Shown here piece by piece: positions 2,853 to 59,185 of a stretch of 64,000 nt of DNA (its first letter is position 1; the number at the start of each line of letters is the position of its first letter). The position numbers were made by a program, and so were the translations under genes. A model generated the notes under the pieces. It searched no databases. It saw nothing but the letters and a program-made list of their open reading frames with translations, and had not been told where the DNA came from. Location: positions 227,635-291,634 of the forward strand of contig JAVLUZ010000752.1 of the NCBI GenBank assembly GCA_036768485.1, given 5' to 3'. The stretch is from Mermis nigrescens (taxonomy: Eukaryota; Nematoda; Enoplea; Mermithida; Mermithidae).

Positions 2853-3678
<826 letters not shown>

Positions 3679-3962: not shown

Positions 3963-3964
<2 letters not shown>

Positions 3965-4044: not shown

Positions 4045-4048
<4 letters not shown>

Positions 4049-7857: not shown

Positions 7858-8684
<827 letters not shown>

Positions 8685-8969: not shown

Positions 8970-9186
<217 letters not shown>

Positions 9187-13805: not shown

Positions 13806-13848
13806 TATCCTTACGATCATTTTCACGCATTTATTCGTGTCGTTTTAT

Positions 13849-16835: not shown

Positions 16836-17146
16836 AAAGTTTATGTACAAAACATAGGGTGCAACTGGTGGACCATCCGGCTGGTACCGAACTTGCTCTG
16901 GCTGGTACCCGGTTGAACCTGGTTGAATCCCTTGCCCAGGTATGTCTCAGAATAGCTTGAATTTGTAGAGCTTTCTGTTGTTTAATCTGTCTGATCAATA
17001 TTCTCAGACTTCTACCTTTAGAATAATTTGCGGTTTTCTCTTGAATTTTATCCACATGAATTATGCTATAAAAATAGCATGCAAGTTTAATATATAGTAA
17101 TGCCGCTCAACATTAGAAAGGTTATTGCATAACTCGAGCTACTGTA

Positions 17147-18197
17147 TGTAACTGCGAGAGTTACACGTTTAGGCGAACCTGCCTTAGCAGTTCGCAATAG
17201 CCATAACATAGCCAATACTAGTAGCTATCTATGATAGTGCACTGTGGGCTATGCCTTCGGTCTTCCCATTATTTCCCCAAATTTTCAATAATAAAAAACA
17301 TTTAGATACTTGTCCGGTAGCATAGAGCTAAGTGTATGATAATAGTAATTGTTTAATGCATACCGCTTACGTGAATCGAGAACTTTCGATCTGGGATAAA
17401 AGTCATTTCAGTATTATGTTAAATTGATCGTTGTTTTAATTTACTGTAATGGCCCTTGAGGCCAGTGTACGGAAGGTCGTACTAGTTTTTCTGGCTTTTT
17501 GGTTTTTCGTTGGCCGGTTTATTTGACTGTACATTATCGTTTTTCTTTTGCGTATTTTGTTTCCCGGCTTTAGGCCATGCGTTATTCGTCGAATAAAAGT
17601 ATAGAAAACCAACCCAGTGGTTTCGGTTATACCGAGGGTTAGGTCGGCCATCATCCCTACGTCGAGGACTTCCACCTTCTGGTGGACTGATAGGTAAATT
17701 CCGTATGATAGTTTTCTCCATTCGAAAATCATAACTTATTTCTCAAGCCAAAAATTGATCAAAATTATTATCTAATCTTTAAGGATGATTGATCAGCATA
17801 GAGCTCGTTGTTGTTGTTTTCATAGTTCAGCGTGCTACACAAATTAGGAACCAAAACATTTCGAATCAGGCACTGATTGAAAATAAGTTAAATTACAACT
17901 TGAGCTTGAGATAGGTCAACTGACCTCCGCGGCAATTACCGAGACTAGGTAGGTAGCCTTAGGTCTTAGGGCGTAGCTGCTGAGATCACCCGACATAGAA
18001 GCAGCCAGCAATATTAGGGCTGAGGGGATCGAAGCCGTAAGGTCTGTAAGGGTCCAAAGATCGAAAGCCTTAGAGCCGCGCGATCGGGGCCAGCACTAAG
18101 CGTAGACTTAAGTACCTACGTACCTAGGTAAATCTCGAAGGTAATGTATCCGTCCTATGTCGATTCTTTGTAGACATAAGGCGGCTCTACATTTACA
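17147..18197 (+). repeat. 5' LTR
   Basis: Starts TGTAACTGCGAGAGTTACACG and ends CTCTACATTTACA (TG...CA type). It contains an AATAAAAAA stretch near 17291 that could act in polyadenylation. Reading frames inside on the minus strand are not conserved as genes. Confidence 0.93.
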
Positions 18198-18198
18198 T

Positions 18199-18216
18199 TG
18201 GACGTTCCCTCCTTTA
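18199..18216 (+). promoter_or_regulatory. Primer binding site
   Basis: TGGACGTTCCCTCC begins one base after the 5' LTR, as expected for a sequence complementary to a tRNA 3' end (…CCA). I cannot assign the tRNA by eye. Confidence 0.6.
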
Positions 18217-18773: not shown

Positions 18774-21053
18774 TTGACACCTAAAAATGGCAGGAAAAAG
18801 GTTTTGCGGACACCGCCCGCTAAATTGAAAAAACCTTCTACGCCACCTACTTCAGCTCGCCAATTACCTACCGCGCCTGTTGACTTTAATAGCGCGTGTA
18901 ATTCTGCGAATAATGACACAATTACGAGAGACGTAACGACTAAGGCGAATAATGATAAATTACTCACGTCACTACATGCCGCGAGTAATACACAGTCCGA
19001 AGACAAATTATCATTGAGTACCATGTGATCTCGCATTAATCAATCTTCGCTAACTAGGTCGGATCCTAATATTGACAATTCATCAAGTCACACAATGATC
19101 GATAATACGACTACCATTAACACGGCAAATAACCCTGAAACCAGTTCGGAACGCAAAAATCACGATTCTGACGTAGAAAGTAATCATAGTCGCTGCATGA
19201 ATGCCGACAGAGAGCATGCTAATGCTAATGTGACTAATGATCTTATTTTGAAAGCGCTACAAGCTATTCATTTGCAATTTTCGGATCTTTCTACGCGCGT
19301 TGATCAAGATAAAAAGGAAAATGCGGATGAAATGCGTAAACTGTGTTTGGAGCTAAGCACTATGCTTAAACCCCAACCAGTTCTGAATCGCATAGAAACT
19401 AATGTATCTGAGCGCGTTAACCACTCAATTGATAGCGCAAATTTTTCTGAATTCAATGCGCAAAGTGCGAATCGTGCGCAAGTTCGCATAGGGCATCTTC
19501 ACTGTTGTATACTAGCAACAGAGCATCGAATTCACGCTCACCTTCGGAAACTGTTCCAGACAATATTTCTCAAAGTTGTACAAACCGCGCGCCGGAAATA
19601 TGTAATTTGTCACAGAATCCTGTAAACACGGGTTTGCAATCAGTGCAAAACTCGGGTTTTTCGGAGAATATACCTACGATTTTGCAGCCGTCGGTATCAA
19701 TTTTGCAGACGTCGCGATCTCGGCCTTCGCTGCCATTAAATCGTAATGCGCCTTCCTTCGTACCTAATCCTTCTATTGCGAACTCGCAGCAGCAACTAAA
19801 TCCACCACTGCTGCAGTATTTTCCACCTCAAGGAGAAATCTTACCCAATAATTATGTACCTAATCCTATAAATGTGGAAATACCACCTAATAATCCTATC
19901 TTGCATTCTTCTAATATTGAAATGCAACCGGTTGAGATAAATTTATCTGGTATTAATAATGAATCTGCAAATTTGCAAAATGAAGCTGCTCCTCAATCTG
20001 AATCGTCTAGTAGGAAAAAACATGTCAAATTTTCTGACGACAGCTCATCTAATAGTTATGATCGCCCGCGCAGTCGCCGCTCGCGTCGCAAATCTCGATC
20101 GCGCAGACGACGTCATAGACATAGTTCAGGTTCTTCATCTGAAAGCTCGCGTGGTGATTCATGTCTCGCTGATTCCTTGAATCGCGGACCATTTTTGCAG
20201 CAGATGCAATTTGCAATTGCAAATAAAAAATTTTTTGATGGCGATAAATCAGACATAAAGGCATATTTTGCAGAATTTGAATCGCTTGCCAATACCTATG
20301 ATATTGACAAGGCTGATCGTTTAAAATTCGCTACTGGATTTCTTGACCCTTATGTTTTGCGCCTATACCATTCATTACCTGCTGATATACAACAATCTTA
20401 TTCGAAAATGAAGCATGCGCTAATAACTGAATTTTGTCCTATGGACACCGGTGCGCTCTTTAATCGTTTTTTTTGTCACACAAACAGCAGCCCAACGAAT
20501 CGGTTAAAGCTTATTATCTCTCGCTTTGCAAAGAGTTAATTAAATCGGATCCCTATCTTGAAGTTGACTCGCCACATTTTAATAATTTAATGCGACATCA
20601 ACTAAAACAAGCTTTATTACCACATATTTCGAAAGAGGCATATCATAAAAAACCTAGAGCATCATTAGCTGAATTTTTGGACAATGCGCTTAGCGCTGAA
20701 TTTGCTAATAAAGAATTTGAGGATAAAAAGGCAGTAACGCCTTACGTATCGGTAACAGCTGCTCCAGTAGGCAGCGTAGTACCTAAAGATACTCCTCGCG
20801 CATCGAATCAAAATGATACAAATCGTTCACGTCATCGAACGTTTCATCGCTCATCGCGTGCTGAGAAACCAGAAAATTCTTCTCGTAAATATTGTACCTT
20901 TTGCAAGTGCATAGGTCACATTTATGAGGAATGTTTCACGCGTCAAAGGCAAGAAACGTCTAATAATGCTAATTTTAATAATCAAGCTGATTGGAATACT
21001 AATTCTATGGCGCGCAATCGCAGCCAATCGCGTTCTTTTCGCGACGAAATCGT
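18774..21053 (+). pseudogene. gag: gag (broken into three or four frames)
   Basis: The N-terminal part is polar and Asn/Ser-rich; the middle has an Arg-Ser-rich stretch (RSRRSRRKSRSRRRR, near 20070); then comes a conserved retrotransposon gag core (FFDGDKSDIKAYFAEFE...) and a CX2CX4HX4C zinc knuckle (CTFCKCIGHIYEEC, 20893-20934), which binds RNA. Breaks seen: an ATG at 18787 out of frame with the body by one base in an A run, an in-frame TGA at 19026, and single-base losses near 19490, in the T run near 20471, and near 21050. On either side of each break the expected protein resumes in another frame. Gag forms the virus-like particle. Too broken to be expressed as written, unless the breaks are assembly errors. 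Confidence 0.85.
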
Positions 21054-22007
21054 TTGCCATCGCGTTCGAATTCGCAGAATAGGCATCAATCTCAATCACG
21101 ACATCGTAACTCTAGTCAACATCGTTCATCTAACTATGCGAATAATGATAATCGTTTTGAATCAAAGCAATCACGATCGAATTTTCGGCAAAATCGTAAT
21201 GATCATTACCAAAATTCGCGTGCTAATTATCAAAATTTGCGTTACGATAATCGTTATAATAACCAATCGCGCCAAAATACACCTTTTGTGCAATTTCCTA
21301 ATGAACAGCGTGGCACACACTATAAATCTAGTTATCGCAGCGATAATAATTTCAATCGCCCGTATGTCACATACACTGCAGACAACCAACCCGCCTTGAA
21401 TATACCCCCACCGCAGCCAACCCTTACATCTCCTCGTGATGTGAACACGGTTACTGCAAAAGAGCAAGAATCTAGCGCGCGTCCTAATTTCTTCGCATCG
21501 CAAGAATTTCTTGAAGAGTACAAATGTCTACAACATCGTCTTGCAACTTACGAAAAAATTAATCTACCTCCATCTAAGATTTTCGATCCTAATATTCCTA
21601 TCGTAAGTCATGCTGGGACAAATTTACCCACTATTCTCGTTAAAGTTCATGGCGTTGACGTGCCTGCTCTGATAGATACGGGTTCACAGGTCACCATGAT
21701 GACCACATCAGCATTCTTACGTCTTGGTTTTAATTTACCACCTAAGCAAGTTTCACAAGTCGTACATGGTGTAGGCGAAATTACCGCAGTTGTTCGCTAT
21801 AAAGTAAATATGACTTTAACAATCGCGGAACAATCTATTTCTACCTCAGTAGCTATAATTGATCACTTGCCGGAAGACATGCTTTTAGGATATGATTTTT
21901 GCAAATCTGCACTCATGTGGGTTAATCCTATTGAGCGTTGTGCTTTTATAAACGGCATAAAGATTAATTTACTTTCATCTCACAAAAAATTGCAATTTCA
22001 GCGCTGA
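21054..22007 (+). CDS. Basic gag tail and aspartic protease
   Basis: The first half is Asn/Arg/Gln/Ser-rich nucleocapsid-like sequence. The protease domain follows: ALIDTGSQVTMM with the catalytic DTG at 21675-21683, then a flap-like region and MLLGYDF (the family's LLG signature). It would cleave the Gag-Pol polyprotein. The frame ends at TGA 22005-22007, with pol resuming in another frame at about 22046 (VSLPESV...), implying a lost base between them. It is joined to gag only through the frameshift near 21050. Confidence 0.85.
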   Translation: MPSRSNSQNRHQSQSRHRNSSQHRSSNYANNDNRFESKQSRSNFRQNRNDHYQNSRANYQNLRYDNRYNNQSRQNTPFVQFPNEQRGTHYKSSYRSDNNFNRPYVTYTADNQPALNIPPPQPTLTSPRDVNTVTAKEQESSARPNFFASQEFLEEYKCLQHRLATYEKINLPPSKIFDPNIPIVSHAGTNLPTILVKVHGVDVPALIDTGSQVTMMTTSAFLRLGFNLPPKQVSQVVHGVGEITAVVRYKVNMTLTIAEQSISTSVAIIDHLPEDMLLGYDFCKSALMWVNPIERCAFINGIKINLLSSHKKLQFQR

Positions 22008-22045
22008 AACCCAACGCAACCACCTCTGGTGTTGTGTGTGTGTAG

Positions 22046-23992
22046 GTTTCGTTACCTGAGTCTGTTATTATACAACCTAGGCATGAATTAATTACACCTG
22101 GCTACATAAGTCACGGTTCTTGCAATTTTGATTTCGCATTATTCGAACCAAATCCCGATTTTATGGAAAAAACTTCACTTTTTGTTGCTCCGTCTATAGT
22201 CGATGCTTCACAACCTCTAATACCTGTTCGCGTCTGTAACATCTCTAAAGCACCAATTCGCATTGATCTGGTGAAATAATAGGTTCTTTAACCACTGATG
22301 CCGAAGTCGTGTCACATGTTTCATCCTTTGATGATAGGACACCAGAACTTTTTGCATCAATAAATAAAGCTTTAAATGGCTCCGCCGTTGATTCTAGACA
22401 GCAGCAACAAATTCGTGAACTTTGCTTAAAATACGACTCAATTTTTCCATTAAAAAATGAACCTCTCGGTTGTACCCATATGTGGGTAGCAAGAAAATTC
22501 TGGGGGTGCAAGATTTTTTTGAAGGTCGAAAAATGGCCTTAAAAATGGTGGTATGGCGATAAAAACACCATTTTTCGACGTTTCTCATCAAGCACTATCC
22601 ATTGGCATCAAAAAATTGCGGAAAAAACGAAAAAATTTTCAAAACTTGAATTCTGGGGGGTATTTTGATTTCTGGGGGGGGGTATTTGGTTTCTGGGGGT
22701 GCATACCCCCCCCAAACCCCCCCCCCCACGCCCAGGTGTGGTCGTACCCCCTTGATGAAACATCATATTGACACAGGGGATAATCCACCCGTTGTTGGAA
22801 AAACTTACCGTGTTGAGCATTCTAGAAGAGAATCTATGCAGAAAATTATAAATGAAATGCTTGCGGATAAAATTATTCGACCTTCAACTAGCCCATGGGC
22901 AAGTCCATCATTTCTCATTGGGAAAAAGGACGGTTCCCTTAGGCCAGTCGTCGATTATCGACGGTTAAATGACGTCACTAAAACGCAAGTTTACCCTCTT
23001 CCACAATTAGACGATTATTTTGATACCTTAGGCAGTACTGCATATTTTAGCACACTAGATTTAAAATCTGGATACTGGCAAATTCCACTCGATAATAAAT
23101 CTCGCGAAAAAACAGCATTTATATGTCCTGTTGGTCATTACAAATTTGAAGTTTTACCTTTTGGTTTAAAGAATGCGCCCGCAGATTTTCAAAGACTAAT
23201 GGAGCTTGTGCTCGCAGGTCTAAATTAGAAATCGTGTCTTGTTTACATTGATGACATAATTATTTTTTCACGTACTTTCAAAGAACATTTAAAAGATCTT
23301 GAAAATGTCTTCATTGCTCTTAAAAAGGCAAACTTACGTGTCAAGCCTGATAAATGCCATCTCGCGCATGCAGAGGTAAAATTTCTTGGCCACAGCATCA
23401 GTGCAATGGGCATCGCTCCCGATATGTCTAAAGTCGCAGATTTAATCTCGTTTCCCGTACCAAAACCGTTAAATCAGTGCAGAAATTTCTTGGCTTAGTC
23501 CAATGGTTTAAGAAATTCGTTAAAGATCTCGCTAAAATCGCTAAACCGCTATTCCATCTTCTACGTAAAGATGTCGAATTTTGCTGGAAGGCTGAACACC
23601 AAACCGCTTTTGAGCTTCTGAAGAAAGCATTTACATCCCCACCTATTTTGCAATTACCAAAATTCGATAATGAGCACCAATTTATTTTAACAACTGACGC
23701 AAGTAACTATGCGTTAGGTGCTATTTTGACACAAAAGCATTTACCATCCAAAAGTCGTTTTATTCTTAGCTACGCTAGTCGCATGCTAAATTCTGCTGAA
23801 TGTAATTATGCTACTTCAGAAAAAGAAGCGCTAGCAGTAGTGTGGGCCATCAAGCATTATCGACATTATCTTTACGCTAAAAAATTCATTGTTGAAACTG
23901 ATCATCAAGCGTTAACCTGGCTAGTAAATGTTAAAGACCCATCGAGTCGATTACGTCCGTTGGGGTCTCAAATTACAGGAATACGAATATGA
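22046..23992 (+). pseudogene. pol: Reverse transcriptase and RNase H (interrupted)
   Basis: RT motifs in order: SPWASPSFLIGKKDGSLR, VVDYRRLND, FSTLDLKSGYWQI, PFGLKNAPADFQR, and the active-site YIDD at 23244-23255. RNase H follows: TTDASNYALGAIL, SEKEALAVVWAI and ETDHQAL. This synthesises cDNA from the genomic RNA. Breaks: a base lost near 22270; a 266-bp family A repeat inserted at 22478-22743 with GTACCC on both sides; an in-frame TAG at 23226 in place of a usual Trp; a base lost in an A run near 23466; and a base gained near 23950. The inserted repeat shows that this copy is truly dead, whatever the status of the small indels. Confidence 0.9.
22478..22743. mobile_element. Family A repeat inserted in RT
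   Basis: Flanked by GTACCC (22472-22477 and 22744-22749). Removing it and one flank rejoins the RT reading frame. This gives direct evidence that family A is mobile, with a target duplication of at least 6 bp. Ends read ATGTGGGTAGCAAG and CCCAGGTGTGG. Confidence 0.8.
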
Positions 23993-25764
23993 TATCGTTT
24001 ACGTTCCTGGTGCATATAACTGCGCAGCTGATCTTCTTTCACGTCATCCTAAATATGATAATGCAGAATGCAAATATAAAGTAGAGCGCAAAAATATTGT
24101 TAACATCGCAAATTTAGAATCCGAAGATTCTGAGTCAGATGACAAATTGGTTCCACCTGAACGATCGTGCGATAATACCCCTACTGCGCCAATTAATCAT
24201 CCAAACGCACAAAATAATAATCCTAGTGCGCAAACCGATCCTATTAATTCTAAACCACCTACATTTTGCGAACGCTTGTTACTTACCGATGCAGAAAAAG
24301 CTGAAATGCTAACACCTGCGCGTTTACTCGCTGAGCAACGTGCAGATGACGAATTGCATAAAATTCGCATCGCATTGAATGACTTAACAATGAAAAAATA
24401 TCGTGACGAATTTTTTCTCGTAAACGATGTACTTTTTTGTCGTTTTCAACCTAAGCGTTCACCAACTGTCGTTCATCAAATAGTCATACCCAAATCTTTG
24501 TGTCGCTTCATATTAACGGAATTTCATGACTCTATTTTCGGAGCTCATTTTTCATCGCGCAAAATCTTGCCCGCCATACAAATGCGTTATTGGTGGCCGC
24601 GTATGGAAAATGATGTGATCGCGTGGTGTAGGAATTGTGATGTGTGCTTACAACGTAAGGTCGCATTAAATTCCACATCCGTTCCGTTGCAACCAATCGT
24701 AGTATCCGCGCCCTTTGAACTCATTGTGTGCGATTGTTTGCATATGCCGCGATCTCCCTCCGGAAATGACCAAATTGTAGTTTTTATGGATTATTTTACA
24801 AAATACGTGGAAGCTTTTGCTGTTTCTGATATAAAAGCAACAGCTATTGCAAATCTATTACTAAGAGAAATTATACCACGTTATGGAGTCCCCAAGAAAT
24901 TTTTGACAGATCAGGGGTCAAATTTTACATCTACCCTAATTTTGGAAGTTTGTAAACTATTAAACGTTCAAAAAATATTTACAACCCCATATCACCCCCA
25001 GTGTGATGGGTTGGTGGAACGTTATAATCGTACATTGATTGATGGTTTGTCTAAGCTGAGTGCGCGTTCACAGTATGATTGGGAACAATTTTTACCCTTC
25101 GCATTATTTGCATACCGCGCGACTCCACAATCATCAACTAATATATCTCCTTTTGAAATGCTTTATGGTCGTGAACCAGCATTTCCTCTTGACACTTTAC
25201 TCATAAATGACTTCGTGATGAATCCGAATTTACCATCTGTTGCAGAAAAATACGTCATTGATTTAAAGCTGACTTTGCAGGATCTGCATGAAATCGTGTC
25301 TCAAAATTTATCTCAAGCGCGTAAGCAGCAAAAATCGCAATATGACAAAGCCGTAACGCACACAAATTTTAATCTCTCGGATATAGTCTACCTCAATAAT
25401 ACTTCAGTCATTCAACCTGAAATCGGTAAACTGTCACCCAAGCGTGTTGGTCCCTACCGGATTATTGACTTACCTACGCCTGAAACTGCAAAAATCGCAT
25501 ATGTCCATAACCCTCTCATTATTCATCACGTTCACAGGAATAGACTTTTGCCTGAACCTAAATTACCTTATTCTGACTTAATTGTGGAAAAGCACGCTAG
25601 ATGTCCCTGGCGATTTTGTGTTGGTAAAGTTACCACATCGCCCTCTTGCCCCGGTAGTTGTCATAAGTTTTGAGGATTTACCGGGCAGGGAACAAAAAGC
25701 TAAGGACTGCGCGCCTGTACGTTTATTAAATGGTTCTAAAACAGCACATGCCGCACCATCATAG
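23928..25764 (+). CDS. Retrotransposon integrase
   Basis: The 581-codon frame starts with the RNase H tail (YNCAADLLSRHP) and then encodes the integrase: an HHCC zinc domain (FHDSIFGAHFSSRK...WCRNCDVCLQRK, about 24520-24660), the DDE core (first Asp in VCDCLHMP, second in FLTDQGSNF, Glu in GLVERYNRTL), and the KY(V)EAF and PFEMLYGREP signatures. It inserts the cDNA into the genome. Near 25600 one extra base shifts the frame; the C-terminal end continues in the next frame to a stop at 25764. The 25131-25764 stretch is repeated at 29353-29990. Confidence 0.9.
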
Positions 25765-28549
25765 GTAGCGCGTTAGCGCTGTACCTATAATATACTTGGG
25801 TACCCCCAACACCTGGGCACCCCCCCTACAGCTATAACGGGACACTTCTGGAAGGTGCGGTTTTTTTTAAAAGAAAGATAATAAAAAAATTCGCTGCCCG
25901 TGTTTTTTTGTTTTTCTTGAAACTCAAAATTGACTGTGTAAAGAAGGTGTAAAGTTTTTGTGTAACGTTATAACATAGGACAAATTTTGGGACCTTTTTA
26001 CTGCGGCATGTGGACAACTGAGTATTGATGACTCGAAGGATTGAACAGAATAGGATAATAGAGGGATGAATTCTACAGATGACACTTTTTTTGTTTTTTG
26101 AAATTCGCATTATTTATTGAACGGCAGTGTAAAGAGTGCGAAAATCTGGGGGTGAAAAAGCACTTTTTGGTCGAGTTTTCAACCTTCCTATGTCCGATAC
26201 TAACTCCGGTTATGAGGTTTTTAAAATGTTTTCTGACAGAAATGTAGAGCGGATCAAGGGCTACATTCTGCATATAAGGAAAGTCTTCTATGCTCTATGG
26301 TGAGTTAGATCCTGGGGTTTAAAGTTTACACTCTAGTGGATGGTGTAAAAAAACGGATTTTAACTAAGATTTCTCTGCCAAATTTTTCCGCTTATGAGTC
26401 AGTGCAAATCGAAGACAGCATTAATAAAGTGCCTTACAGGGGCTAAACATCGCAGCAAACCGCATTTAAAAAAACGCAATATTGAGTTATTTATGGGGGT
26501 GTAAAGTTCGAAATCAGAGGTGAAAAATGGGCTAAAAAACACGTTTTTTCCGAAGTTTGATTGATAAATCATGCCAAATAATTTTTGCAACAGAATTTTG
26601 GCACACAGGAATGTACTACGATTTAAAAGCTACAAATTGTACCAAACCGAATTTCTTTAAACTCAATGGGGAGTTCGGTACGGAATTTTAAAGTTTACAG
26701 TGTTCTAAATGATGGAAAATACGTTTTTGTTGCGTTTTTTGTTCGCCACTTTCTCCGTCCAGAAGTCGGGATAAGTCTAATAGAATAAAAATAAAGTGCT
26801 TTATATCGGATGCATGTCAAAGCAAATTGTCTATACATTAATATTTAGCGAGTGTAAAGTCAAAAATTTGGAGTCTAAAATGCGTTTCTGTCTTGTTTTT
26901 TCTGCCTGCTTCTCCGGATACGAGTCAGGGACACGTTTATCAAGTCTAGAAATGGACCAGGAACCAAATTTGATATGCCAGTCTGGCACATATGTTTACA
27001 CTCTACGGTGTTGTAAAGTAGTTTACACCAATTGTTAGTTTGCCCATAGAACATTATGTAGACTTAATTTTTTCATAAATATTAATCGTAATATCGGAAC
27101 AATATCAAAATTACGAATCTGACTAAAATCTTCTTTACACTAGGTGTTTACATGAAGTTTACACTACATATGTATTTATCTTCGTTTTTGAGCATTCCAG
27201 AAACCTAATTTTTTCCTGGAGTCTAGAAGTTTTCAAAGGATCATATGTGAGACGTCACGTAGGTGCGTTTGTTTACATCCAACAGTGATGTAAAGTAGTT
27301 TACACTCACTGTTTATATGTCCTCAGACCATTGTAGAGACATAATTTTTTCATGAATGTTGATCATAATATCCGAGTAATTTTTTACACTGCATGTTAGC
27401 CTTTGTTCTAGAGCATTGCAAAATCCGAAATTTTTTCCTGAGATATAAAAATTTACAGGGAATGAAATATATACGTCAGTTGGGCGCGCTTGCTTACACT
27501 CAGCAGTATTGCAAAGTGGTTTAAACCTAATGTTTATTGTCTTTAAAACATTATGGACTCATTTTTAAATAAATGTTGAAAGTAATATGGGAGCAATATC
27601 AAAATTACGAATCCGACTAAAATATTCTTTACGCTATGTGTTTGTGTAAAGTTTACATTACGTGTTAACCTTAATTCGATAGACTTGCAGAGACTTTGTA
27701 ACTGAAGTCAAGAAATTTTCAAGGATTCATATGTGAGACATCAATTAAGTGAGTTTGTTTACCCTCAAAAGTAATCTAAAGTGATTTAAAAATTATGTTC
27801 AAGTGTCCTTAGATCATTGAAGAGATGTAATTTTGTCTTAAATGGGTTGCATTAAAGTTAAATCCTTCTTAGCCGTGTTTATAATATGTTTCACAAAATC
27901 TTGCACATGGAGAGCTATCGTTTAATTGATGTAAATTGCCTGCAAAAGTGGTTTAAAATGAACCAGCAATCACACTACTGTGCACAGAAGTCGACAAAGA
28001 TATGCAGCTTTATTGTAATCATGTACATTAATAAGCCGTAAACTGTTAGTATTCTCTACACCTAGTAGTTGTGTAAAGTTTGCACTATTCATTTGTTGTT
28101 AATATGTAGTCTATACTACAAATTTATTTTACTACCAAATCGAAGCGTTAGTGTTCCTTACATTTGATATTTGCGTGAAGTTTTTGAATTTTTGCCGAAA
28201 AACTTTGCCTCCTAATTTACCAACATCCCGCCTTTTCCATTTTCTTAAAGTTTAAAATCTTTTATAAGTCTCTTAATAATTTAATAGTAGGTTTTAACTT
28301 TAAGTTTCTCTTGGTATACAACTCTCGCTTAGCAAGCTCATTTTTCAAAACTTTTTCATAGTGATCAGATTAGTCGCGTTTAGTTTGGAATTGGTGGACG
28401 GTCGTTGTCTTGTTTAAAAAGGATAATGCTGATGTTAAGAGCAATATTGTTTTCCGCGTTCTTGGACTGTTGTCATTATTGTGGCATGTTACTGATTGTG
28501 TTTACTGACTGATGTACTGAAATCACGCTAATTAAAAAGTAGTGTACTA
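25765..28549. repeat. Degenerate satellite block with GTGTAAAG/TTTACAC motifs
   Basis: AT-rich, no gene. From about 26100 to 26950 there are about five imperfect units of ~190 bp; from about 26980 to 27900 about four units of ~250 bp (each with TCTTTACAC..., GTTTACA... and AAGTAGTTTACAC elements, and a GTCC(T/C)(C/T)A...CATTGTAGAGACATAATTTTTTCAT arm). TGTAAAG and its complement face each other repeatedly, often as near-palindromes (GTGTAAAGTTTACAC near 26320 and 27645). The remainder to 28549 shows nothing recognisable. Confidence 0.7.
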
Positions 28550-29350
28550 GCAAGAAAAATGCTCCGATGGAACAAAAAGATGAATATACTTGGAATTGTG
28601 GATTATTATGGATGTAAAAGGAGGGGACTAGGAAAAATCTACCTAAAGTCGGAAAATCTGCTAAAAATCACACTTTCTCTAAGCAACGCAAAAAATCGAT
28701 GTATATTCTGCGGCCAACAGATTAAAATAAATATTCAACCATAACAATGATTCGAAACAGCAGCACGTTAGCCAGTGCAGTAGCTATGGGAAATGATATT
28801 AAGTAAACTAACAGTCTTCCAATTGCTGGCAATTGAATGAAATAGCAAACATCGAAGACAGTATTGTAATGACAGTTGTGTTGGTTAATAAACAGTATGA
28901 AACACGTAAAGTTGATTTGAAACAGATTGAATGTAGTATACACTAATCATGCCCGAAACGATTGCTAGTGCATCTACATCAATCGGCTCAACTGCTGTGC
29001 TTGCTATAATGCTCATAAAACCAAACAACTTTAAATACAATTGCCTCTTCGATGTTTGCTATTTCAATCAGGTGGCATGCAAGTTTAAAAAAGTATACCT
29101 TGATAGCATTTCGTTTAGCTACTACATGACTTACGTGCTGAAACTTCGAATCATTGTTATAAAAAGAGACACTTTTTTAGATGGCCGCAGAATATACATC
29201 GATTTTTTGCGTTGCTTAGAGAAAGTGTGATTTTTAGCAGATTTTCCGACTTTAGGTAGATTTTTCCTAGTCCCCTCCTTTTACATCCATAATAATCCAC
29301 AATTCCAAGTATATTCATCTTTTTTTGTTCCATCGGAGCATTTTCTTTGC
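28550..29350. mobile_element. Foldback element with ~167-bp inverted arms
   Basis: The arms 28550-28716 and 29184-29350 are nearly perfect inverted copies (left end GCAAGAAAAATGCTCCGATGG, right end reversed GCAAAGAAAATGCTCCGATGG). A second, weaker inverted pair lies inside (CAAACATCGAAGA near 28845 and TCTTCGATGTTTG near 29046). No transposase. It abuts the duplicated integrase fragment directly. Confidence 0.85.
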
Positions 29351-29352
29351 TT

Positions 29353-29990
29353 CAGTCAACTAATATATCTCCTTTTGAAATGCTTTATGGTCGTGAACCA
29401 GCATTTCCTCTTGACACTTTACTAATAAACGACTTCGTGATAAATCCGAATTTACCTTCCGTTGCGGAAAAATATGTCATTGATTTAAAGCTGACTTTGC
29501 AGGATCTGCATGAAATGGCGTCTCAAAATTTATTTCAAGCGCGTAAGCAGCAGAAATCACAATATGACAAGTCCATGTGGCCCAAACAAATTTTTCTCTT
29601 TCGGATATAGTCTATCTTAATAATACCTCAGTCATTCAACCTGAAATAGGTGAATTATCACCCAAGCGTGTAGGGTCCCTACCGGAACAACTGACCTACG
29701 CTACATGCAAACTGCAAAAATCGCATATGTCTATAACCCTCTCATTATTCATCACGGTTCACAGGAATAGACTTTTGCACAGAGCCTAAAACTACCTTAT
29801 TCTGACTTAATTGTGGAAAAACACGCGTATGTCCCTTGCGATTTTGTGTTGGTAAAGTTACCACATCGCCCTCCTTGCCCCGGCAGTAGTCATAAGTTTT
29901 GAGGATTTACCGGGCAGGGAACAAAAAGCTAAGGACAGCGCGCCTGTACGTTTATTAAATGGTTCTAAAACAGCACATGCCGTACCATTA
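29353..29990 (+). pseudogene. Duplicated, decayed integrase C-terminal fragment
   Basis: Homologous to 25131-25764 (STNISPFEMLYGREPAFPLDT... to the end of pol) but with several indels, for example around 29575, 29690 and 29730. After this copy, not the first, come the splice acceptor and ORF2, so this is the original pol-ORF2 junction and 25131-29350 behaves as an interpolated segment. Confidence 0.9.
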
Positions 29991-29993
29991 TCT

Positions 29994-30012
29994 AATGTTT
30001 TTCCTTTTGCAG
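29994..30012 (+). promoter_or_regulatory. Probable 3' splice site ahead of ORF2
   Basis: CTAAT followed by GTTTTTCCTTTTGCAG is a good branch-like plus pyrimidine-tract plus AG arrangement, four bases before ATG 30017. With the donor at 18361 it would yield a spliced message for ORF2, as env messages are made in retroviruses. Not proven. Confidence 0.5.
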
Positions 30013-30016
30013 ACCC

Positions 30017-33000
30017 ATGGCTGCACAAGGTACCCCCAGCAAGGAGGCATTGTTGGAAGCAGCTGGTCGCCGATGCAAATTCAAAGGGCATGTTCCCGCG
30101 TCCCTAGATGAGTTTCGTTCGGCGTTGACCAGTATGGCTTTAGACTGGGGTTTGGTTGTACCCGACCCGCTGCCGCAACACGATAATCGTCGTGTTGGCG
30201 GTCTCGAGTCACTTACCACAAAAATGGGTAAAGCATAAAGCAACACATAAAATCGCAAATCACAGAAAGCGTATAAATGACCAACAACTCTGGTGGGAGA
30301 ATCGGCTTGGTAGAAGTCCTTTGGTAACCCCTCGCGTACCAAAGAATAGAGCTTCTTCCCACCGTCATAGTCTCCGACGACCAGACGTCGTTTGGCGCCA
30401 TTTTGGCGTTAATTCAGCCATCGAATATGACTAATGGCACTTTATTCTTAGGCTACGACTCTGAATTTGTGAATGATAGAAAAGGCAGGCATTATAAGAC
30501 CTGGGACCTGCGTTTTCAACAACTATGTCCCACTTACCAGGACCTCCATGGCCCATTTGTACGCTAAGTCCAAGTTGCGAGCGCGACTGGCCATGTGTTC
30601 TGTTGGGATCTAGCAAAGTTTCCGCAACCTCCATTCGGGCTTCACCAGTTGCTTGAAACGCGTTTACCTAACATTTATATGGTTTGTTACGATCCAACGC
30701 AAGATCGACTTGCGTATTTCCATGTCTACGGGCCAACCTTCGAGGAAATTGTAGCAATTCCGGATGCAGAAATTCGCAATAAACTGCACTGGAAAGACCC
30801 ATTTATTGCAAATTTCATTGACATTCAGCCATTGGCGAGAAGATTTACTCGTCGTTTACGCATTAAAGCGCAATCGCACTCGTTAAAGCGCTTGGCGGAA
30901 TTCTTTTTTGACATGTACATTGATCCGAACGCGCCTGGTAACTTCGGACAGGCGTGGAGCTTACCCTTAACTCGGGACATGCAGCATTATCTAGCGATGG
31001 ACGCCCTCATAACTATCAATGTTTTTATACTGATAGAAGGGTGCTCGCAGGATAATCGCATTACTGACGATAGAAAGCCCATGTCGGTTTCTTTCGTAGG
31101 CGATGAGTTGTACATTAAGGCTAGTGGCCCGAAAGCCAAAGTACGCATACCATTGTCGACTAGCAAGCCACCACAAGGGCAGTCGACCAGCACAGCTGTT
31201 GAAGCTGAAGTGGATTCAAATGGCGAAGAGTTAATCTTAGCTGAGGACTTTTATTGCCCGGCTCCTCAACCACAAGTAGCTATAGCGGCAGCCACCACCA
31301 TTGCCTCAGTAACGGAAGCGTTGGCTCACGCTAACGTGTTTGACAATCCTGACTTACAAGTGCAGGCTTCGCAAACCGTTGCCGACACAGTTTCGGGCCC
31401 GGTAAATGCGCCTGACACGGAACCTAAGTCAAAACCAACCAGTACGAGTACACCAGCTTCTGTGTTTTCTTCGCAAACCGATATTCCCTACGATTCGCCT
31501 ATGCTGGGTGTAGAACCATCGATCTCCACTGAAGACGATGATTTATCTCCCAAACGTTTAGTGATGGCGTTATCTGACACCGAGGCGGAAACACAGGCTA
31601 ACGTGTCGCCACCGCGCGTAACACGCGGAGCAATGGCTCGAAAAGGGATTGTTACCGTTTCGCAACCGATTGTCTCGCAATCGCTTGCGGCGGTTCAACA
31701 AGCACCCTTGGGTATCAGTGCACTCGGACCTTTGCCGACTCTTCAGCCGGTCGGGGCAGAGCAGCAAGCTGACCCAGATGTCATCATGACTGATATTATC
31801 GGTTTTCCGCCACAACCGCAACGTACATTAGCCGCACACGAAGTACCTCATGTAGCATTATACACGCAAGTCACGACTCAACCCGTGTCACAAGGTACGA
31901 CGGCACCGGATACTCGTTTCACGGCTCCTATGGCCATGACGGGTGTGTCTAGTACCGTGGCAAATTTGCAATCACAGGCTACGCAAAGCCAACCATCAAA
32001 TATGGAAGTCGCAATACCTGCGCACGTGCAAGCTATTCGCGACCAGATGGCCGCGAATGAAAGCGCTAGAATTCAAAATCGCTCGCGCTACGTACAGCAT
32101 TTTTTCACAATGATGGAAAATATGACGCGCGAACCACCGTGCACTATCGCGCCAGTCGTTTTGCACGATTTACGTTCCTATTTGGGTGAGGTCGCAGGAT
32201 CGCGTTTGTACGATCAGTTGGTCGAAGCTGCTCAAGTGTACTTCGATCGAGTGTACGCAATCCATTTGCAGTACGCAAATTCGACTGATTCGCCCTCGCG
32301 CCCATTAGTGTGGTCTACGCTCGCACAGCCTTTGGCTGATGCCGATTGTGAGCCCGCACCTAGGTTCATAAGCGATATGAGCGTCTTTAACCGATTATTT
32401 TATCCTGACCAATACTTCGTGCGCATACGGTTTTTTATCACAACCGGAATGATGTTGTACGAGGTTCCGCTCGAGTATTTGGTCGTACACCCACATCTTG
32501 ACGCACCAAGCAAAGTGATTGACGGCGTTACACATCAAATTTGCCCGGATTTATATCCGCATAGAATGTCACCAGCGCCGGATCACCTAGCGCCAATTCT
32601 AATACCGACACGCCAGATGGTCGATATTTTCGATACTTTCCGAGAATTTCAGTCTTTATATGAGTCGGAGTATCGACACATGACGGTCTTTTCTTCAATA
32701 GACGTCATGCGCGCTACAGCGCTTTTGGAATTTCTGGATAGAAAATTCCACTATTTCGCATACGCCTATGGCAATGCCGGAATAGGTTGGCGTATGACGG
32801 AACAGTTGCGTCGCATGTTACGCGTAGCGTTCCTTGGCGAATCTTACACGCCATCTCCACGTGAGGCTTTTCCGGAATTCCCGGACTTAACAGCACGAAT
32901 CGAAAGTCCTCATGTTTTACACAACATGATTAGGCAAATTCGGTTAGCTACCGACCCGGCACTTGAAGTTCCGGCTCAGTTTGATCGTTTTCGAGGTTGT

Positions 33001-34170
33001 CAAAAATCTGTATTTTACCTCAAACATTGAATACGAGACAAATTGGAAAAAATTCGTAAAGAAAGGCGACAGGCATCCTCGCAGGACCCAAGCGGATCCG
33101 CAGCGAGCCTTGATATGCCCGAAGTCGATCTTTCCTTGGAAGCACAAATTGCGATGCGTCGAACACGCATGACGATCGAGCAGCGTGATCGTGAGAATTT
33201 GGCTACGGAAATGCCACGGCGTGCGACAAAGTTACGCGCCGCCGGTTCTCTTGCTGAGACTTCAGAAGTTTGTCACATGCCAGAAGACAAACACAAGGCA
33301 AAATTGAATCGTTTTTACGATACTAAATCCGAGCACACTTTGCGTCGGTTGAAGAATTTGGAAAAACAACGAGTAAGAAGACTCGTTCAAGCTGAAGTTG
33401 CAGCTAAGTTAAAAGCGCATTTAGGCCAAAGGGGATCGAGGCGACAAGACCCGCAGTCATCCCGGCAGCGCTATGCGCAAACGCACCACCGTTCACAGTC
33501 ACAAGCACAACCGCAGACACAAGTAAAACCGCATGTACAGCAATACACAAGACCGCAGACCCAACCGCGGCAACAGCAGCAATTCACGGAATCGCGTGAG
33601 CGTTCCGAGGCGTATTCTCAGGCCGATGCTGGTCATCTGTCGCGCTCGCGACAGCAGCAGCCTTATGAATATCGCCGTCCGCCACAGTCAAACCGCGGAA
33701 CTCATCGGGGCCGGTCACAATCCCGTCAACGTCAACAATGGGACCAGTCGTATCAATCACCGTTGGAACAAAGTCAACCAGCCACCGGGGGTTATCAGCC
33801 ACAACCTCGACCGGGTCCACTTTTGCCGAAACCGTGGCCTGTTACGCAACAACAACAGCATCCACGCGAACCTTCTCGACAGCGAACTTACGGTTTTACG
33901 CCGGAGCAATTATTTACTCTGACGCCACCCATACCGCGTCGTTACGCAGACGACTACGAGGACGACGACAATTTTGAGGACGACGATCGACCCGTCGATC
34001 CACATCGCCGCTTACGCCAACATCTGTACGGGCGTAGGCAATCACCATATGAATATCGTGAGCGTTCGAATACGCGTCGCGAACCGGAATCGGATCAGGA
34101 ATATTTTCAACGACAACGACGTCGCGGAAAATCGTATGGCTCGAAGGCCAAGTACCGCGACCAATATTAA
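30017..34170 (+). CDS. Accessory ORF2: DEDDy 3'-5' exonuclease-like protein with Gln/Arg-rich tail (broken copy)
   Basis: Starts MAAQGTPSKEALLEAAGRR at 30017. Two frame shifts (between about 30200 and 30430) lead into the main frame, open from 30430 to 34170 except for TAA 30565 and TGA 33028. The exonuclease domain shows Exo I (FLGYDSEFV, 30445-30475), the core strand VQVASATGHVFCWDL, an Exo II-like CYDPTQDRLAYF, IDIQPLARRF, and Exo III SLKRLAEFFF...WSLPLTRDMQHYLAMDA (Tyr-x3-Asp). This is the DEDDy arrangement of RNase D, WRN and nematode MUT-7 exonucleases. A Pro/Thr/Gln-rich linker follows, then a globular, unrecognised region (about 32080-33000), a Lys/Arg-rich helix, and a Gln/Arg/Ser tail with an acidic DDYEDDDNFEDDD patch. 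The second copy at 59974-62010 reads through the position of TGA 33028, so the break is secondary. It lies where env would be. Function in the element is unknown. Confidence 0.8.
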
Positions 34171-34966
34171 TTTACAAGTTCGACGTACTGAACTTTTGGA
34201 ACTCTGCGACGGCGTCGACTTTCGACCAGCAGCTTTTCGTCAATTTTTTTTCGTTTTTCGTCCTGATGTGGATTCCAGGACTTCGTGTATCGTCTATTTC
34301 TTGTGTATTTTTTCCTCTTGTCATTTTTTCTCTTGCTGTAAATTTTTCTTTGTCGGTGCTCGTATTTTTCCCCGTAATCTCGCATAATTTGCCATTTTTT
34401 CTCGTTTTACCTCGTATTTTAATTCGTCAGTGACTTTAATTTTTTGCTCAGCATAATGTTGCCTTATCATTCCGTGTCTTAAATTTTCTTGTGTTTAATT
34501 AGCGGTGTTACTATTATGGTACCTTAACTCTTTAACGGACAAGGGGTTAATTTACACCCAATCTACAAAATTTTTCAAATCAAAATTTTTCTCATTACCC
34601 GGGGACTGAAGGAGGCTACTTGGGCAGCATAATCGAATATTATGCAATGCTGTCCAAGACCGGAGTTCATCATTACTCGGGCAACAATATAGTTATCCCT
34701 AGCGCCATTGTGAGTGTTGCTCGAGAGTTTTTCCTGAGTGCGAACGAGGTCATGCGTTGACCGGCTATCGATATTTGTTATTTTTTTGTTCTTTTTATTT
34801 TCGTTTTTCACGTTCGCTCAGGATGAGGCGTTGCGGACGCCAGAGTAGAGGCGTTGCGAACGCCAGAGAGCCGAGTTGTAGAGCGTCGCCGACGCTAGTG
34901 GCGTTGTTTGTACCCCCGAAAAAATTCTCCACTACGTTACTAATTTTTTTTCTATACGTGGGGGAG
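34171..34966 (+). other. Retrotransposon 3' untranslated region with three hairpins
   Basis: No gene. Short hairpins GGCGT-TGCGG-ACGCC (34827-34841), GGCGTT-GCG-AACGCC (34850-34864) and GCGTC-GCC-GACGC (34883-34895) occur in a row. The same region is present in the second copy around 59255-59325. Possible RNA transport or packaging structure; inference only. Confidence 0.5.
34958..34966 (+). promoter_or_regulatory. Polypurine tract
   Basis: The purine-rich GTGGGGGAG ends at the first base of the 3' LTR; it is the expected plus-strand primer. The same tract is seen in the second copy at 59186-59194 (reverse). Confidence 0.75.
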
Positions 34967-36018
34967 TGTAACTGCGAGAGTTACACGTTTAGGCGAACCT
35001 GCCTTAGCAGTTCGCAATAGCCATAACATAGCCAATACTAGTAGCTATCTATGATAGTGCACTGTGGGCTATGCCTTCGGTCTTCCCATTATTTTCCCAA
35101 ATTTTCAATAATAAAAAACATTTAGATACTTGTCCGGTAGCATAGAGCTAAGTGTATGATAATAGTAATTGTTTAATGCATACCGCTTACGTGAATCGAG
35201 AACTTTCGATCTGAGATAAAAGTCATTTCAGTATTATGTTAAATTGATCGTTGTTTTAATTTACTGTAATGGCCCTTGAGGCCAGTGTACTGAAGGTCGT
35301 ATTAGTTTTTCTGGCTTTTTGGTTTTTCGTTGGCCGGTTTATTTCGACTGTACATTATCGTTTTTCTTTTGCGTATTTTGTTTCCCGGCTATAGGCCGTG
35401 TGTTATTCGTCGAATAAAAGTATAGAAAACCAACCCAGTGGTTTCGGTTATACCGAGGGTTAGGTCGGCCATCATCCCTACGTCGAGGACTTCCACCTTC
35501 TAGTGGACTGATAGGTAAATTCCGTATGATAGCCTTTTCTATTCGAAAATCATAATTTATTTCTCAAGCCAAAAATTGATCAAAATTATTATCTAATCTT
35601 TAAGGATGATTGATCAGCATAGAGCTCGTTGTTGTTGTTTTCATAGTTCAGCGTGCTACACAAATTAGGAACCAAAACATTTCGAATCAGGCACTGATTG
35701 AAAATAAGTTAAATTACAACTTGAGCTTGAGATAGGTCAACTGACCTCCGCGGCAATTACCGAGACTAGGTAGGTAGCCTTAGGTCTTAGGGCGTAGCTG
35801 CTGAGATCACCCGACATAGAAGCAGCCAGCAATATTAGGGCTGAGGGGATCGAAGCCGTAAGGTCTGTAAGGGTCCAAAGATCGAAAGCCTTAGAGCCGC
35901 GCGATCGGGGCCAGCACTAAGCGTAGACTTAAGTACCTACGTACCTAGGTAAATCTCGAAGGTAATGTATCCGTCCTATGTCGATTCTTTGTAGACATAA
36001 GGCGGCTCTACATTTACA
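34967..36018 (+). repeat. 3' LTR
   Basis: Matches 17147-18197 with roughly a dozen or more substitutions and single-base indels (for example around 35213, 35292, 35345 and 35530). Ends in TTTACA, followed by the target duplicate TGTA. Confidence 0.93.
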
Positions 36019-36797
36019 TGTATAACATCACTCTTTCCATATTAGTTTATAACATTCGGTCAATAACTGCGGTCCAAAAACCACAAAGTTACACGAAGAG
36101 GACTTAGTATTTTATATTTTAAAGACCTATTTCGTATAAGCTGGCGAATCTTTTCAGACTCTGCAATTGTCCATACGTGCCATAAATTGTGCGCTTTTAC
36201 TGGCCTGTAAGAAAATCAAAAGAAACCGCAAGTTTATATGAAACTGACTATAATGTTTCATAAACCAATTAAAAAATGTTCCTACATGCTGCTTGAATTT
36301 TTTGAGCAGCATCTTCAATTCATCGAATAGGTATTGCTTTGCTGAAGTAAAGGCAAACTGGTATAAATGCTAAAATAGCGTTAAACCCGCCTTATTCCAC
36401 AGTTTCTAGTCGATTTCAAAGCACTTTTGAGGAAAATTGTCAATTTTCATCCTTTTTTGGCCTTTAATTTGCCTTATTTTCAACATAATGTTTCCGATTT
36501 AACCATTCTCAGACCCCCCACCCAACCCCCACTTGCATGTCTGGTCTGAACCATAGATGCACAGCATGGCCGATCGGGGGTAGGAAGGGGCAGCCGGTCT
36601 CGGGGTCAAAAATTGAGCTTTTTAGACTAAATGACCTCAAAAACTGGTAAAACGTTAAAGTAGCGCTAAACTACGTTATGACCCAGTGTCTAGTTGATTG
36701 AAGACTTTAAAATGGAATTTTCATTTATTTTTTGGCCTTCATTTTGCTTTATTTTTCCAGAAAATTTCCCATTCTGAGCTCCTAGAGACCCTCTAAA

Positions 36798-37679: not shown

Positions 37680-57879
<20,200 letters not shown>

Positions 57880-58134: not shown

Positions 58135-59185
58135 TGTAAATGTTAGGGGCCTGCATCTACAAGAGCGACGCAGACCGGCCTAGCATTACCTTCGAGATTT
58201 GCCTAGGTACGTAGGTACTTAAGTCTGCGCTTAGTGCTGGCCCCGATCGCGCGGCTCTGAATGGCTTTCGATCTTTGGACCCTTAGAGACCTTACGGCTT
58301 CGATCCCCTCAGCCCTAATATTGCTGGCTGCTTCTATGTCGGGTGATCTCAGCAGCTACGCCCTAAGACCTAAGGCTACTTACCTAGTCTCGGAATTTGC
58401 CGCGGAGGTCAGTTGACCTATCTCAAGCTCAAGTTGTTTATTTAACTTATTTTCAATCAGTGCCTGATTCGAAATGTTTTGGTTCCTAATATGTGTAGCA
58501 CGCTGAACTATGAAAACAACAACAACGAGCTCTATGCTGATCAATCATCCTTAAAGATTAAATAATAATTTTGATCAATTTTTGGCTTGAGAAATAAATT
58601 ATGATTTCCAAATAAAATAAACTATCATACGAAATTTACCTATCAGTCCACTAAGATGGGAAGAAATCCTCGACGAGTAGATGCCCGACCTAACCCTCGG
58701 TATAACCAGAAACCACTGGGTAGGTTTTCTCTATTTTAATTCAACGAAGAATTCACGGCCTGAAGCCGGACAACAAGCAAAAAGAAAACGGAAACGTACG
58801 GACTATATCAACGTACGACTGGCAAACGAAAAAGCAAAAACGCCAGACTAAACTACAACGTTAAGTACACTGGCCTCAAGGACCATTACAGTAAATTAAA
58901 CAAAGATCAATTTAACGTAATACTGATAAGCTTTTATCTCAGATCAAATGTTATCGATTACACAAGCGGTATGCATGAAACAATTACTATTATCATACAC
59001 TTAACTCTATGCTACCGGACAAGTATCTAAATGTTTTTTATTATTGAAAATTTGGGGAAATAATGGGAAGACCGAAGGCATAGCCCACAGTGCACTATCA
59101 TCGATAGCTACTAGTATTGGCTATGTTATGGCTATCGCGAACTGCTAAGGCAGGTTCGCCTATACGTGTAACTCTCGCAGTTACA
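58135..59185 (-). repeat. 3' LTR of the second copy
   Basis: Full-length (1051 bp), from TGTAACT (59185, reverse) to TTTACA (58135, reverse). Substantially more diverged near its outer end and around 58600-58900 than the LTR pair of copy 1. Confidence 0.9.

What the first reader, a model, noticed from the sequence alone, without database searches (positions are those of the whole stretch)
30017..34170. LTR retrotransposon carrying a DEDDy exonuclease ORF in the env position
The ORF after integrase shows the three exonuclease motifs in order (Exo I DxE in GYDSEF, Exo II Asp in CYDPTQD, Exo III Tyr-x3-Asp in YLAMDA), plus the SLKRLAE...W..PLT framework of RNase D/WRN/MUT-7. Ty3/gypsy elements normally have either nothing or an envelope there. 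Nematode MUT-7 is an exonuclease of small-RNA silencing, so a captured relative could act on cDNA ends or against host silencing; that part is speculation.
Basis: partly seen in the sequence, partly recalled or inferred. Interest (0 to 1): 0.92.

Follow-up and report, generated by a model that had tools for sequence, protein, structure and literature searches.

The report
Jumping gene carrying its own exonuclease
A large jumping element in what is probably a nematode genome carries, after its normal replication genes, a gene for a DNA/RNA-trimming enzyme that selection has kept intact; a similar arrangement was already known in tiny animals called rotifers.

Summary
The window contains one Ty3-type LTR element (17147-36018; 1.05-kb LTRs, 4-bp TSD). 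Its third ORF (30017-34170), behind a splice acceptor, encodes a DEDDy 3'-5' exonuclease. This copy is broken, but the host assembly (524 Mb; probably the mermithid nematode Mermis nigrescens, inferred from assembly size) gave 56 scored matches, 21 with a stop-free frame of 1388 codons or more. Integrase lies upstream in 27 of 27 copies fetched. The five catalytic residues are invariant in 26 of 26, and the exonuclease is the most constrained of four ORF3 parts (dN/dS 0.041), about like integrase. Two more Ty3-type lineages in the genome carry related exonuclease ORFs. A profile of all three matches WRN exonuclease (E=6e-13), EXD2, Egalitarian and a MUT-7 homologue. It is not unprecedented: bdelloid rotifer elements carry DEDDy ORF3s (Rodriguez et al. 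2017). New here: probably a second phylum, three lineages, a 1383-aa protein with an unidentified C-terminal part, and measured purifying selection. Best guess: it trims 3' ends of element RNA or cDNA. A specific MUT-7 capture is not supported; counter-silencing and proofreading remain open.

The parts
17143..17146 (.). target-site duplication TGTA, left
   Evidence: matched by 36019-36022
17147..18197 (+). 5' LTR (TG...CA)
   Evidence: 98.7% identical to the 3' LTR; 13 mismatches and 1 gap in 1052 columns
18199..18216 (+). primer-binding-site-like stretch TGGACGTTCCC..., similar in 3 other copies; tRNA not identified
19095..21399 (+). gag region, broken into overlapping ORFs; CCHC zinc knuckle in 20473-21399
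   Evidence: ORFs; CCHC read by eye
21054..22007 (+). aspartyl protease region
   Evidence: Pfam PF13650 E=1.8e-12
22476..22754 (+). repeat inserted in pol (related stretches at 36798-37074 and 63222-63434)
22665..23228 (+). reverse transcriptase (partial ORF)
   Evidence: Pfam RVT_1 E=1.1e-19
23477..23992 (+). RNase H
   Evidence: Pfam PF17919 E=7.1e-32
23928..25673 (+). integrase, first copy
   Evidence: Pfam PF17921 E=1.4e-18 and PF00665 E=6e-12
25763..29355 (.). insert between the two copies of the integrase end; includes a fold-back repeat 28549-29351
29356..29991 (+). second, degenerate copy of the integrase 3' end (90.5% identical to 25134-25762)
29998..30012 (+). splice-acceptor-like TTTTTCCTTTTGCAG ahead of the ORF3 ATG; same acceptor in the other copies
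   Evidence: sequence; 27 copies
30017..30430 (+). ORF3 N-terminal region, frame-disrupted in this copy
   Evidence: open in 26 fetched copies
30427..30564 (+). ORF3 exonuclease piece with Exo I (GYDSEF)
   Evidence: no Pfam match of its own
30568..31101 (+). ORF3 exonuclease piece with Exo II and Exo III
   Evidence: Pfam PF01612 E=0.0023; profile of families A+B E=9.8e-9
31102..32022 (+). ORF3 low-complexity linker
   Evidence: dN/dS 0.253 over residues 346-665
32023..33027 (+). ORF3 conserved domain of unknown family
   Evidence: no Pfam match; dN/dS 0.136 over residues 666-900
33031..34170 (+). ORF3 Arg/Gln-rich basic tail
34952..34966 (+). polypurine-tract-like CTATACGTGGGGGAG before the 3' LTR
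   Evidence: same in 3 other copies
34967..36018 (+). 3' LTR
36019..36022 (.). target-site duplication TGTA, right
58184..62011 (-). second copy: 3' part of ORF3 (open 61983-59974) plus LTR; the exonuclease part is not in the window

Best explanation
ORF3 is an accessory DEDDy-type 3'-5' exonuclease gene that belongs to the element and travels with it. Shown: it lies between integrase and the 3' LTR in separate insertions, is under strong purifying selection, and keeps all catalytic residues. Inferred: it is made from a spliced subgenomic RNA using the acceptor in front of its ATG, its basic tail binds nucleic acid, and it trims 3' ends of the element's RNA or cDNA (primer remnants, mispaired or non-templated ends) before integration. 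Not shown: catalysis, substrate, expression.
For: [quoted passage not shown] Integrase upstream in 27 of 27 fetched copies, acceptor and ATG kept. 56 scored matches of 2953 candidates; 21 of the 56 have an open frame of 1388 codons or more without a stop. LTR pairs of two other copies differ at 2 of 1050 sites and at 3 sites plus 2 gap columns of about 1054, so recent insertions carry ORF3. Catalytic D147, E149, D229, Y324, D328 invariant in 26 of 26 copies; dN/dS exonuclease 0.041, N-terminal 0.233, linker 0.253, domain 0.136 over 253 pairs of 23 distinct copies. On the same 13 copies exonuclease 0.033 and integrase 0.030. Related ORFs downstream of integrase in 22 of 30 further loci. Profile matches to WRN, EXD2, Egalitarian, NrnC and a MUT-7 homologue, E 6e-13 to 3e-7.
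Against: No biochemical or expression data. The exonuclease is only 21-26% identical to its relatives in the genome. The printed alignments to WRN cover the Exo II and Exo III regions, not Exo I; Exo I rests on the motif and on the alignment to families A and B. No structural model succeeded (pLDDT 40 and 33). Copies were taken from the best-scoring end of the list, which favours conserved ones, and some may be alleles or assembly duplicates. Nothing ties the enzyme to cDNA rather than small RNA.
Confidence: 0.5

Rival explanations
1. Counter-defence: the exonuclease degrades host small RNAs or their precursors and so blunts silencing of the element.
For: The profile finds a MUT-7 homologue and Egalitarian, which act on or bind RNA (recalled); the rotifer authors raised a mut-7-like role (PMC5408684, passages).
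Against: WRN and EXD2 score better than the MUT-7 homologue. MUT-7 promotes silencing (recalled). No small-RNA data here.
Confidence: 0.2
2. Proofreading in trans: the exonuclease removes mismatched 3' ends left by the element's reverse transcriptase, which helps a 14.4-kb genome.
For: Element length 14.4 kb in two copies; exonuclease about as constrained as integrase; best PDB match is WRN, which acts on DNA (recalled).
Against: It is in a separate ORF, not fused to RT; no evidence of association with RT; in rotifers the DEDDy ORF was gained at least twice and is missing from some branches.
Confidence: 0.12
3. Catalytically dead nucleic-acid-binding or structural protein, as Maelstrom and EXD1 are.
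For: Inactive DEDD relatives with RNA-binding roles exist (PMC5408684); long basic tail.
Against: All five catalytic residues invariant in 26 of 26 copies and the catalytic domain is the most constrained part of ORF3. In the three-family alignment (12 sequences) only one catalytic residue is changed, the E in L135.
Confidence: 0.08
4. Unrelated host gene that only neighbours the element, or an assembly artefact.
For: The window copy has a duplicated integrase end and a 3.6-kb insert next to ORF3; GC of ORF3 about 50% against about 40% for gag-pol.
Against: 27 of 27 fetched copies have integrase just upstream; LTRs with a TSD enclose it in three other copies, each with a different TSD.
Confidence: 0.01

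Closest known systems
DEDDy ORF3 of bdelloid rotifer LTR retrotransposons Juno and Vesta (Rodriguez, Kenefick, Arkhipova 2017, PMC5408684; passages read)
   Same: LTR retrotransposon with an RNase D-like DEDDy exonuclease as ORF3 in the env position, present in more than one lineage; ORF3 typically expressed from a spliced message
   Different: Probable host here is a nematode; no dUTPase found in the pol pieces scanned; ORF3 about 1383 aa with a long unidentified C-terminal part; [quoted passage not shown] purifying selection measured here. Direct sequence comparison not possible (their sequences not held).
Athena/Terminon retroelements of rotifers with DEDDy ORFs (PMC5408684, PMC6431247; passages read)
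   Same: Retroelements with a DEDDy accessory ORF
   Different: Penelope-like, not LTR elements, up to 40 kb
Dada DNA transposons with a DEDDy domain (PMC3706591; passages read)
   Same: Mobile element with a DEDDy 3'-5' exonuclease, proposed to process 3' ends
   Different: Domain inside a DDE transposase of a DNA transposon
WRN, EXD2, Egalitarian and MUT-7 exonuclease domains
   Same: Same domain family; profile E 6.4e-13 (WRN), 3e-9 (EXD2), 7.5e-9 (Egalitarian), 2.6e-7 (MUT-7 homologue)
   Different: Cellular genes. Most of the element ORFs aligned share a GRxPL-like motif before the domain, and all share a Trp-containing stretch between Exo I and Exo II; the printed WRN alignments begin after that part, so whether WRN lacks it was not tested
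Errantivirus-type env-carrying Ty3 elements (recalled)
   Same: Extra ORF after pol behind a splice acceptor
   Different: Here the ORF is an enzyme; no env domain found

Membership tests
Ty3-type LTR retrotransposon | Two LTRs TG...CA flanked by a short TSD | tested here: met
   three more copies with TSD TTTA, TTTT, AGCA read from the flanks printed
Ty3-type LTR retrotransposon | pol order protease - RT - RNase H - integrase | tested here: met
Ty3-type LTR retrotransposon | tRNA primer-binding site and polypurine tract | tested here: inconclusive
   TGGACGTTCCC after the LTR and GTGGGGGAG before the 3' LTR, similar in 3 other copies; tRNA not identified
DEDDy exonuclease (DnaQ-like, PF01612) | Exo I DxE, Exo II D, Exo III YxxxD in order | tested here: met
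   invariant in 26 of 26 copies; the same columns in 12 aligned sequences of three families, one E to K
DEDDy exonuclease (DnaQ-like, PF01612) | Statistical sequence match to known members | tested here: met
   ORF3 alone is below the Pfam cut-off; through families A+B E=1.7e-20; family A and B loci exceed the cut-off; joint profile against WRN E=6.4e-13, covering the Exo II and III regions
DEDDy exonuclease (DnaQ-like, PF01612) | RNase-H-like fold in a structure model | tested here: inconclusive
   single-piece model without Exo I, pLDDT 40
DEDDy exonuclease (DnaQ-like, PF01612) | 3'-5' exonuclease activity | not testable with these tools
   needs protein
Rotifer Juno/Vesta DEDDy-ORF3 elements | DEDDy ORF3 between integrase and 3' LTR | tested here: met
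Rotifer Juno/Vesta DEDDy-ORF3 elements | dUTPase in pol (three rotifer-specific lineages) | tested here: not met
   no dUTPase in the pol pieces scanned, protease-RT interval included; pol is broken in this copy and was not scanned in others
Rotifer Juno/Vesta DEDDy-ORF3 elements | Sequence kinship of the ORF3s | not tested
   rotifer sequences not held
MUT-7 | MUT-7 as nearest relative | tested here: not met
   a MUT-7 homologue ranks below WRN, EXD2, Egalitarian and NrnC among solved structures; no Pfam domain besides PF01612 in ORF3; no tree made
env-carrying errantivirus | Transmembrane or fusion glycoprotein ORF | tested here: not met
   no Pfam env match; the highest 19-residue hydropathy is 1.68, marginally above the usual 1.6 (recalled), but it lies at residue 325 inside the Exo III region

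The most novel reading that the evidence does not exclude
A clade of nematode Ty3-type elements depends on a dedicated DEDDy 3'-5' exonuclease that edits the 3' ends made by its reverse transcriptase (proofreading or end-repair in trans), comparable in logic to ExoN of large RNA viruses. It would be a reverse-transcribing element with its own editing enzyme, kept under constraint like that of integrase and present in three deeply separated lineages.
Probability: 0.1. Interest if true: 0.88.

Novelty: new variant of a known kind. Interest (0 to 1): 0.55.

Why it matters
It suggests that an exonuclease ORF in LTR retrotransposons is not a rotifer oddity but occurs in what is probably a second animal phylum, in three lineages of one genome, and that selection keeps its active site. 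That turns an open question (are these captured enzymes useful to the element?) into a testable one with a substrate assay. Many uninterrupted copies in one sequenced worm, some in recent insertions, allow RNA-seq and small-RNA tests.

Tried and rejected
Single-sequence homology: two protein searches of the 811-aa piece (one on its residues 1-185) against 5.8 billion proteins found nothing. Viral contigs: nothing for ORF3 or integrase. PDB with single sequences or near-identical copies gave chance hits (GRB2, an epimerase) and EXD2 only at E=1.3. NCBIfam: none. A profile of 80 enterobacterial RNase D genes plus E. coli rnd showed no signal with hhalign; both alignments were too shallow. Structure models of window pieces failed (pLDDT 40 and 33). 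No Rfam match in the window at the gathering threshold.

Rejected: neighbouring host gene (27 of 27 fetched copies have integrase upstream). Rejected: decayed relic only (dN/dS 0.116 between the two window copies over 678 gap-free codons; 0.041 for the exonuclease). So the exonuclease is about as constrained as integrase, not more. Not supported: a specific MUT-7 origin. A shared C-terminal domain between the three families was looked for with profiles and not found.

Weak points. The 27 copies fetched are of the 56 scored, the best of 2953 candidates. L014 was left out of the selection test because its first part is out of frame, and three duplicates were removed before the count. Integrase dN/dS used 16 of the 20 copies fetched by place; four with stops were dropped. 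Eight copies were fetched for LTRs: in four (C41, C57, C51, C513) no LTR was found in the 5' piece, in C457 the 3' match was incomplete, three gave flanks; of these C366 has LTRs differing at 78 sites plus gaps, with its 3' end extrapolated, so it may be recombinant or old. Of the 30 PF01612 loci 22 have integrase upstream (L147 only weakly, E=2e-5) and 8 do not: L126, L130 and L142 look like spliced host genes, L127 is cut short, and L144, L146, L149 and L152 showed none in the flank held. Five of the 46 PF01612 matches over the cut-off pass only with their neighbours in the frame. The split into families A and B is by eye. The host species is inferred from assembly size, not tested by a marker gene.
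Full report
What is there. Self-comparison shows LTRs at 17147-18197 and 34967-36018, 98.7% identical (13 mismatches and 1 gap), with TG...CA ends and a 4-bp target-site duplication TGTA on both sides. Between them are a gag region with a CCHC knuckle (by eye), protease (PF13650 E=1.8e-12), RT (E=1.1e-19), RNase H (E=7.1e-32) and integrase (E=1.4e-18) in Ty3 order. A PPT-like GTGGGGGAG precedes the 3' LTR and a PBS-like TGGACGTTCCC follows the 5' LTR; both recur, the latter with small changes, in three other copies.

The copy is damaged. A repeat sits in pol (22476-22754) and a ~3.6-kb stretch (25763-29355, with a fold-back repeat) separates the integrase from a second, degenerate copy of its 3' end (29356-29991). 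ORF3 (30017-34170) has frame changes in its first 400 bases and two in-frame stops. A second, 3' partial copy lies on the minus strand at 62011-58184 and is open over 669 codons.

Identity of ORF3. The five DEDDy positions are present at 30457, 30463, 30703, 30988 and 31000. Taken alone the domain gives only a sub-threshold Pfam match to PF01612 (E=0.0023 for the window piece; 0.036 for the 811-aa piece; 0.004 to 0.012 for natural copies), over the Exo III part of the profile, and nothing in NCBIfam. The decisive step was a PF01612 search of the host assembly: 51 matches, 46 over the cut-off (five of these only with their neighbours in the frame), most of them in long frames. By eye most of the 30 loci fetched fall into two families, A (such as L128, L131, L136, L140, L146) and B (such as L135, L138, L141, L148, L154). 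A profile of these ten hits three natural ORF3 copies at E=1.7e-20 to 3.1e-19 and the window piece at 9.8e-9 (database size set to 25000); the window frame that holds Exo I alone scores 0.061; none of 300 shuffles is listed. The printed alignment runs through Exo I, II and III. In a 12-sequence alignment D60, D142, Y237 and D241 are invariant and E62 is changed once, in L135. The joint profile finds WRN (6.4e-13), EXD2 (3e-9), Egalitarian (7.5e-9), NrnC (1.4e-7) and a MUT-7 homologue (2.6e-7) among solved structures; the matched stretches listed for these begin at profile position 94 or later, so they cover the Exo II and/or Exo III regions and not Exo I. By sequence this is a DEDDy exonuclease; a fold model was not obtained.

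It belongs to the element. The host assembly has 523,963,438 bases in 860 contigs. The Mermis nigrescens paper gives 524,220,005 bases in 867 scaffolds and 83.98% repeats (PMC10989877, passages), so I infer that species; no marker gene was tested. The 811-aa ORF3 piece matches 56 scored places, the window's own included, at 89-100% identity; 21 of the 56 have an open frame of at least 1388 codons without a stop. Some places may be alleles or assembly duplicates: that paper reports 6.6% heterozygosity. In 27 of 27 fetched copies a Ty3 integrase lies just upstream on the same strand, and the acceptor and ATG are kept (in L014 the anchor is shifted but the same string is present). Two copies have LTR pairs differing at 2 of 1050 sites and at 3 sites plus 2 gap columns of about 1054, with TSDs TTTA and TTTT and lengths of 14,361 and 14,371 bases; a third has TSD AGCA but LTRs about 92% alike; five of the eight tried gave no complete pair.

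Selection. Between the two window copies 678 codons align without gaps; differences by codon position are 40, 23 and 139, dN/dS is 0.116 (bootstrap 0.08-0.165), and out-of-frame controls give 1.5 and 3.1. Among 23 distinct genomic copies (253 pairs) dN/dS is 0.041 for the exonuclease (residues 131-345), 0.233 for the N-terminal region, 0.253 for the linker and 0.136 for the following domain (to residue 900); catalytic residues are invariant in 26 of 26. For integrase, 16 copies gave 0.076, but two outliers drive this: without L020 and L024 it is 0.030, and on the same 13 copies the exonuclease gives 0.033. The exonuclease is thus constrained about like a core enzyme. The sample leans to well-kept copies, which may lower all values, but the contrast between parts of the same ORF is not explained by that.

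Three lineages. Ty3-type integrase lies upstream in 22 of the 30 PF01612 loci fetched. Integrase identity is 34-36% between L128 (A) and B, 35% between L128 and this element, and 38-41% between B and this element; shorter fragments of other A members give 19-32%. Most of the aligned exonuclease ORFs share a GRxPL-like motif before the domain, and all share a Trp-containing stretch between Exo I and II, which suggests one origin or exchange among element lineages rather than separate captures; no tree with cellular genes was made. Profiles of the C-terminal parts of the three families do not match each other.

Function. Shown: position, conservation, selection, family. Inferred: spliced expression, nucleic-acid binding by the Arg/Gln-rich tail, action on 3' ends in replication. 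Env function is unlikely: no env domain, and the one hydrophobic peak (1.68) lies inside the Exo III region. Counter-silencing and proofreading are open.

Precedent. Rodriguez, Kenefick and Arkhipova 2017 (PMC5408684, abstract and passages) described RNase D-like DEDDy ORF3s in rotifer Juno and Vesta elements, acquired at least twice, also found in Athena retroelements, and discussed 3'-end processing and a mut-7-like role. A 2019 paper counts a DnaQ-like exonuclease among the well-known accessory domains of LTR elements (PMC6338049, passages). Dada DNA transposons carry one too (PMC3706591, passages). In the open-licence library, searches listed no nematode case that I could recognise from titles and abstract starts; one search found 4,268 papers and listed 8, and one search listed 12 of 13. 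Five papers were read in passages, none in full, the M. nigrescens paper included; its supplements were not seen. Papers outside that library were not searched. Hence: new variant of a known kind.

Noticed in passing
33533-33922 and 60611-59808 (-): Alternative frame inside the ORF3 tail, open for 129 and 267 codons in the two copies; synonymous divergence in the tail (0.24) is about half that of the domain before it (0.53), which could mean an overlapping constraint.
   Followed up: no
25763-29355: Insert between two copies of the integrase 3' end, with a fold-back repeat at 28549-29351: recombination between elements, nested insertion or misassembly.
   Followed up: partly
L126-L155: Two further families of DEDDy ORFs, mostly downstream of Ty3-type integrase, in the same genome; L126, L130 and L142 look like spliced host exonuclease genes.
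   Followed up: partly
1-16000: About 5-kb unit repeated three times (near 143, 5151, 10290) with AT arrays and 21/42-bp tandem repeats.
   Followed up: no
22476-22754, 36798-37074, 63222-63434: Short dispersed repeat inserted in pol, next to the element and near the second copy.
   Followed up: no
30001-34000: ORF3 has about 50% GC against about 40% for gag-pol and 30-42% in most of the window, hinting at a different origin or codon use.
   Followed up: no
38982-40112, 43507-47015, 62387-63170: Large fold-back (inverted) repeats.
   Followed up: no
P0001, P0002: Closest integrase relatives (55% identical) carry a PWWP annotation (PF00855) and come from unnamed contigs; whether those elements have an exonuclease ORF is unknown.
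   Followed up: no
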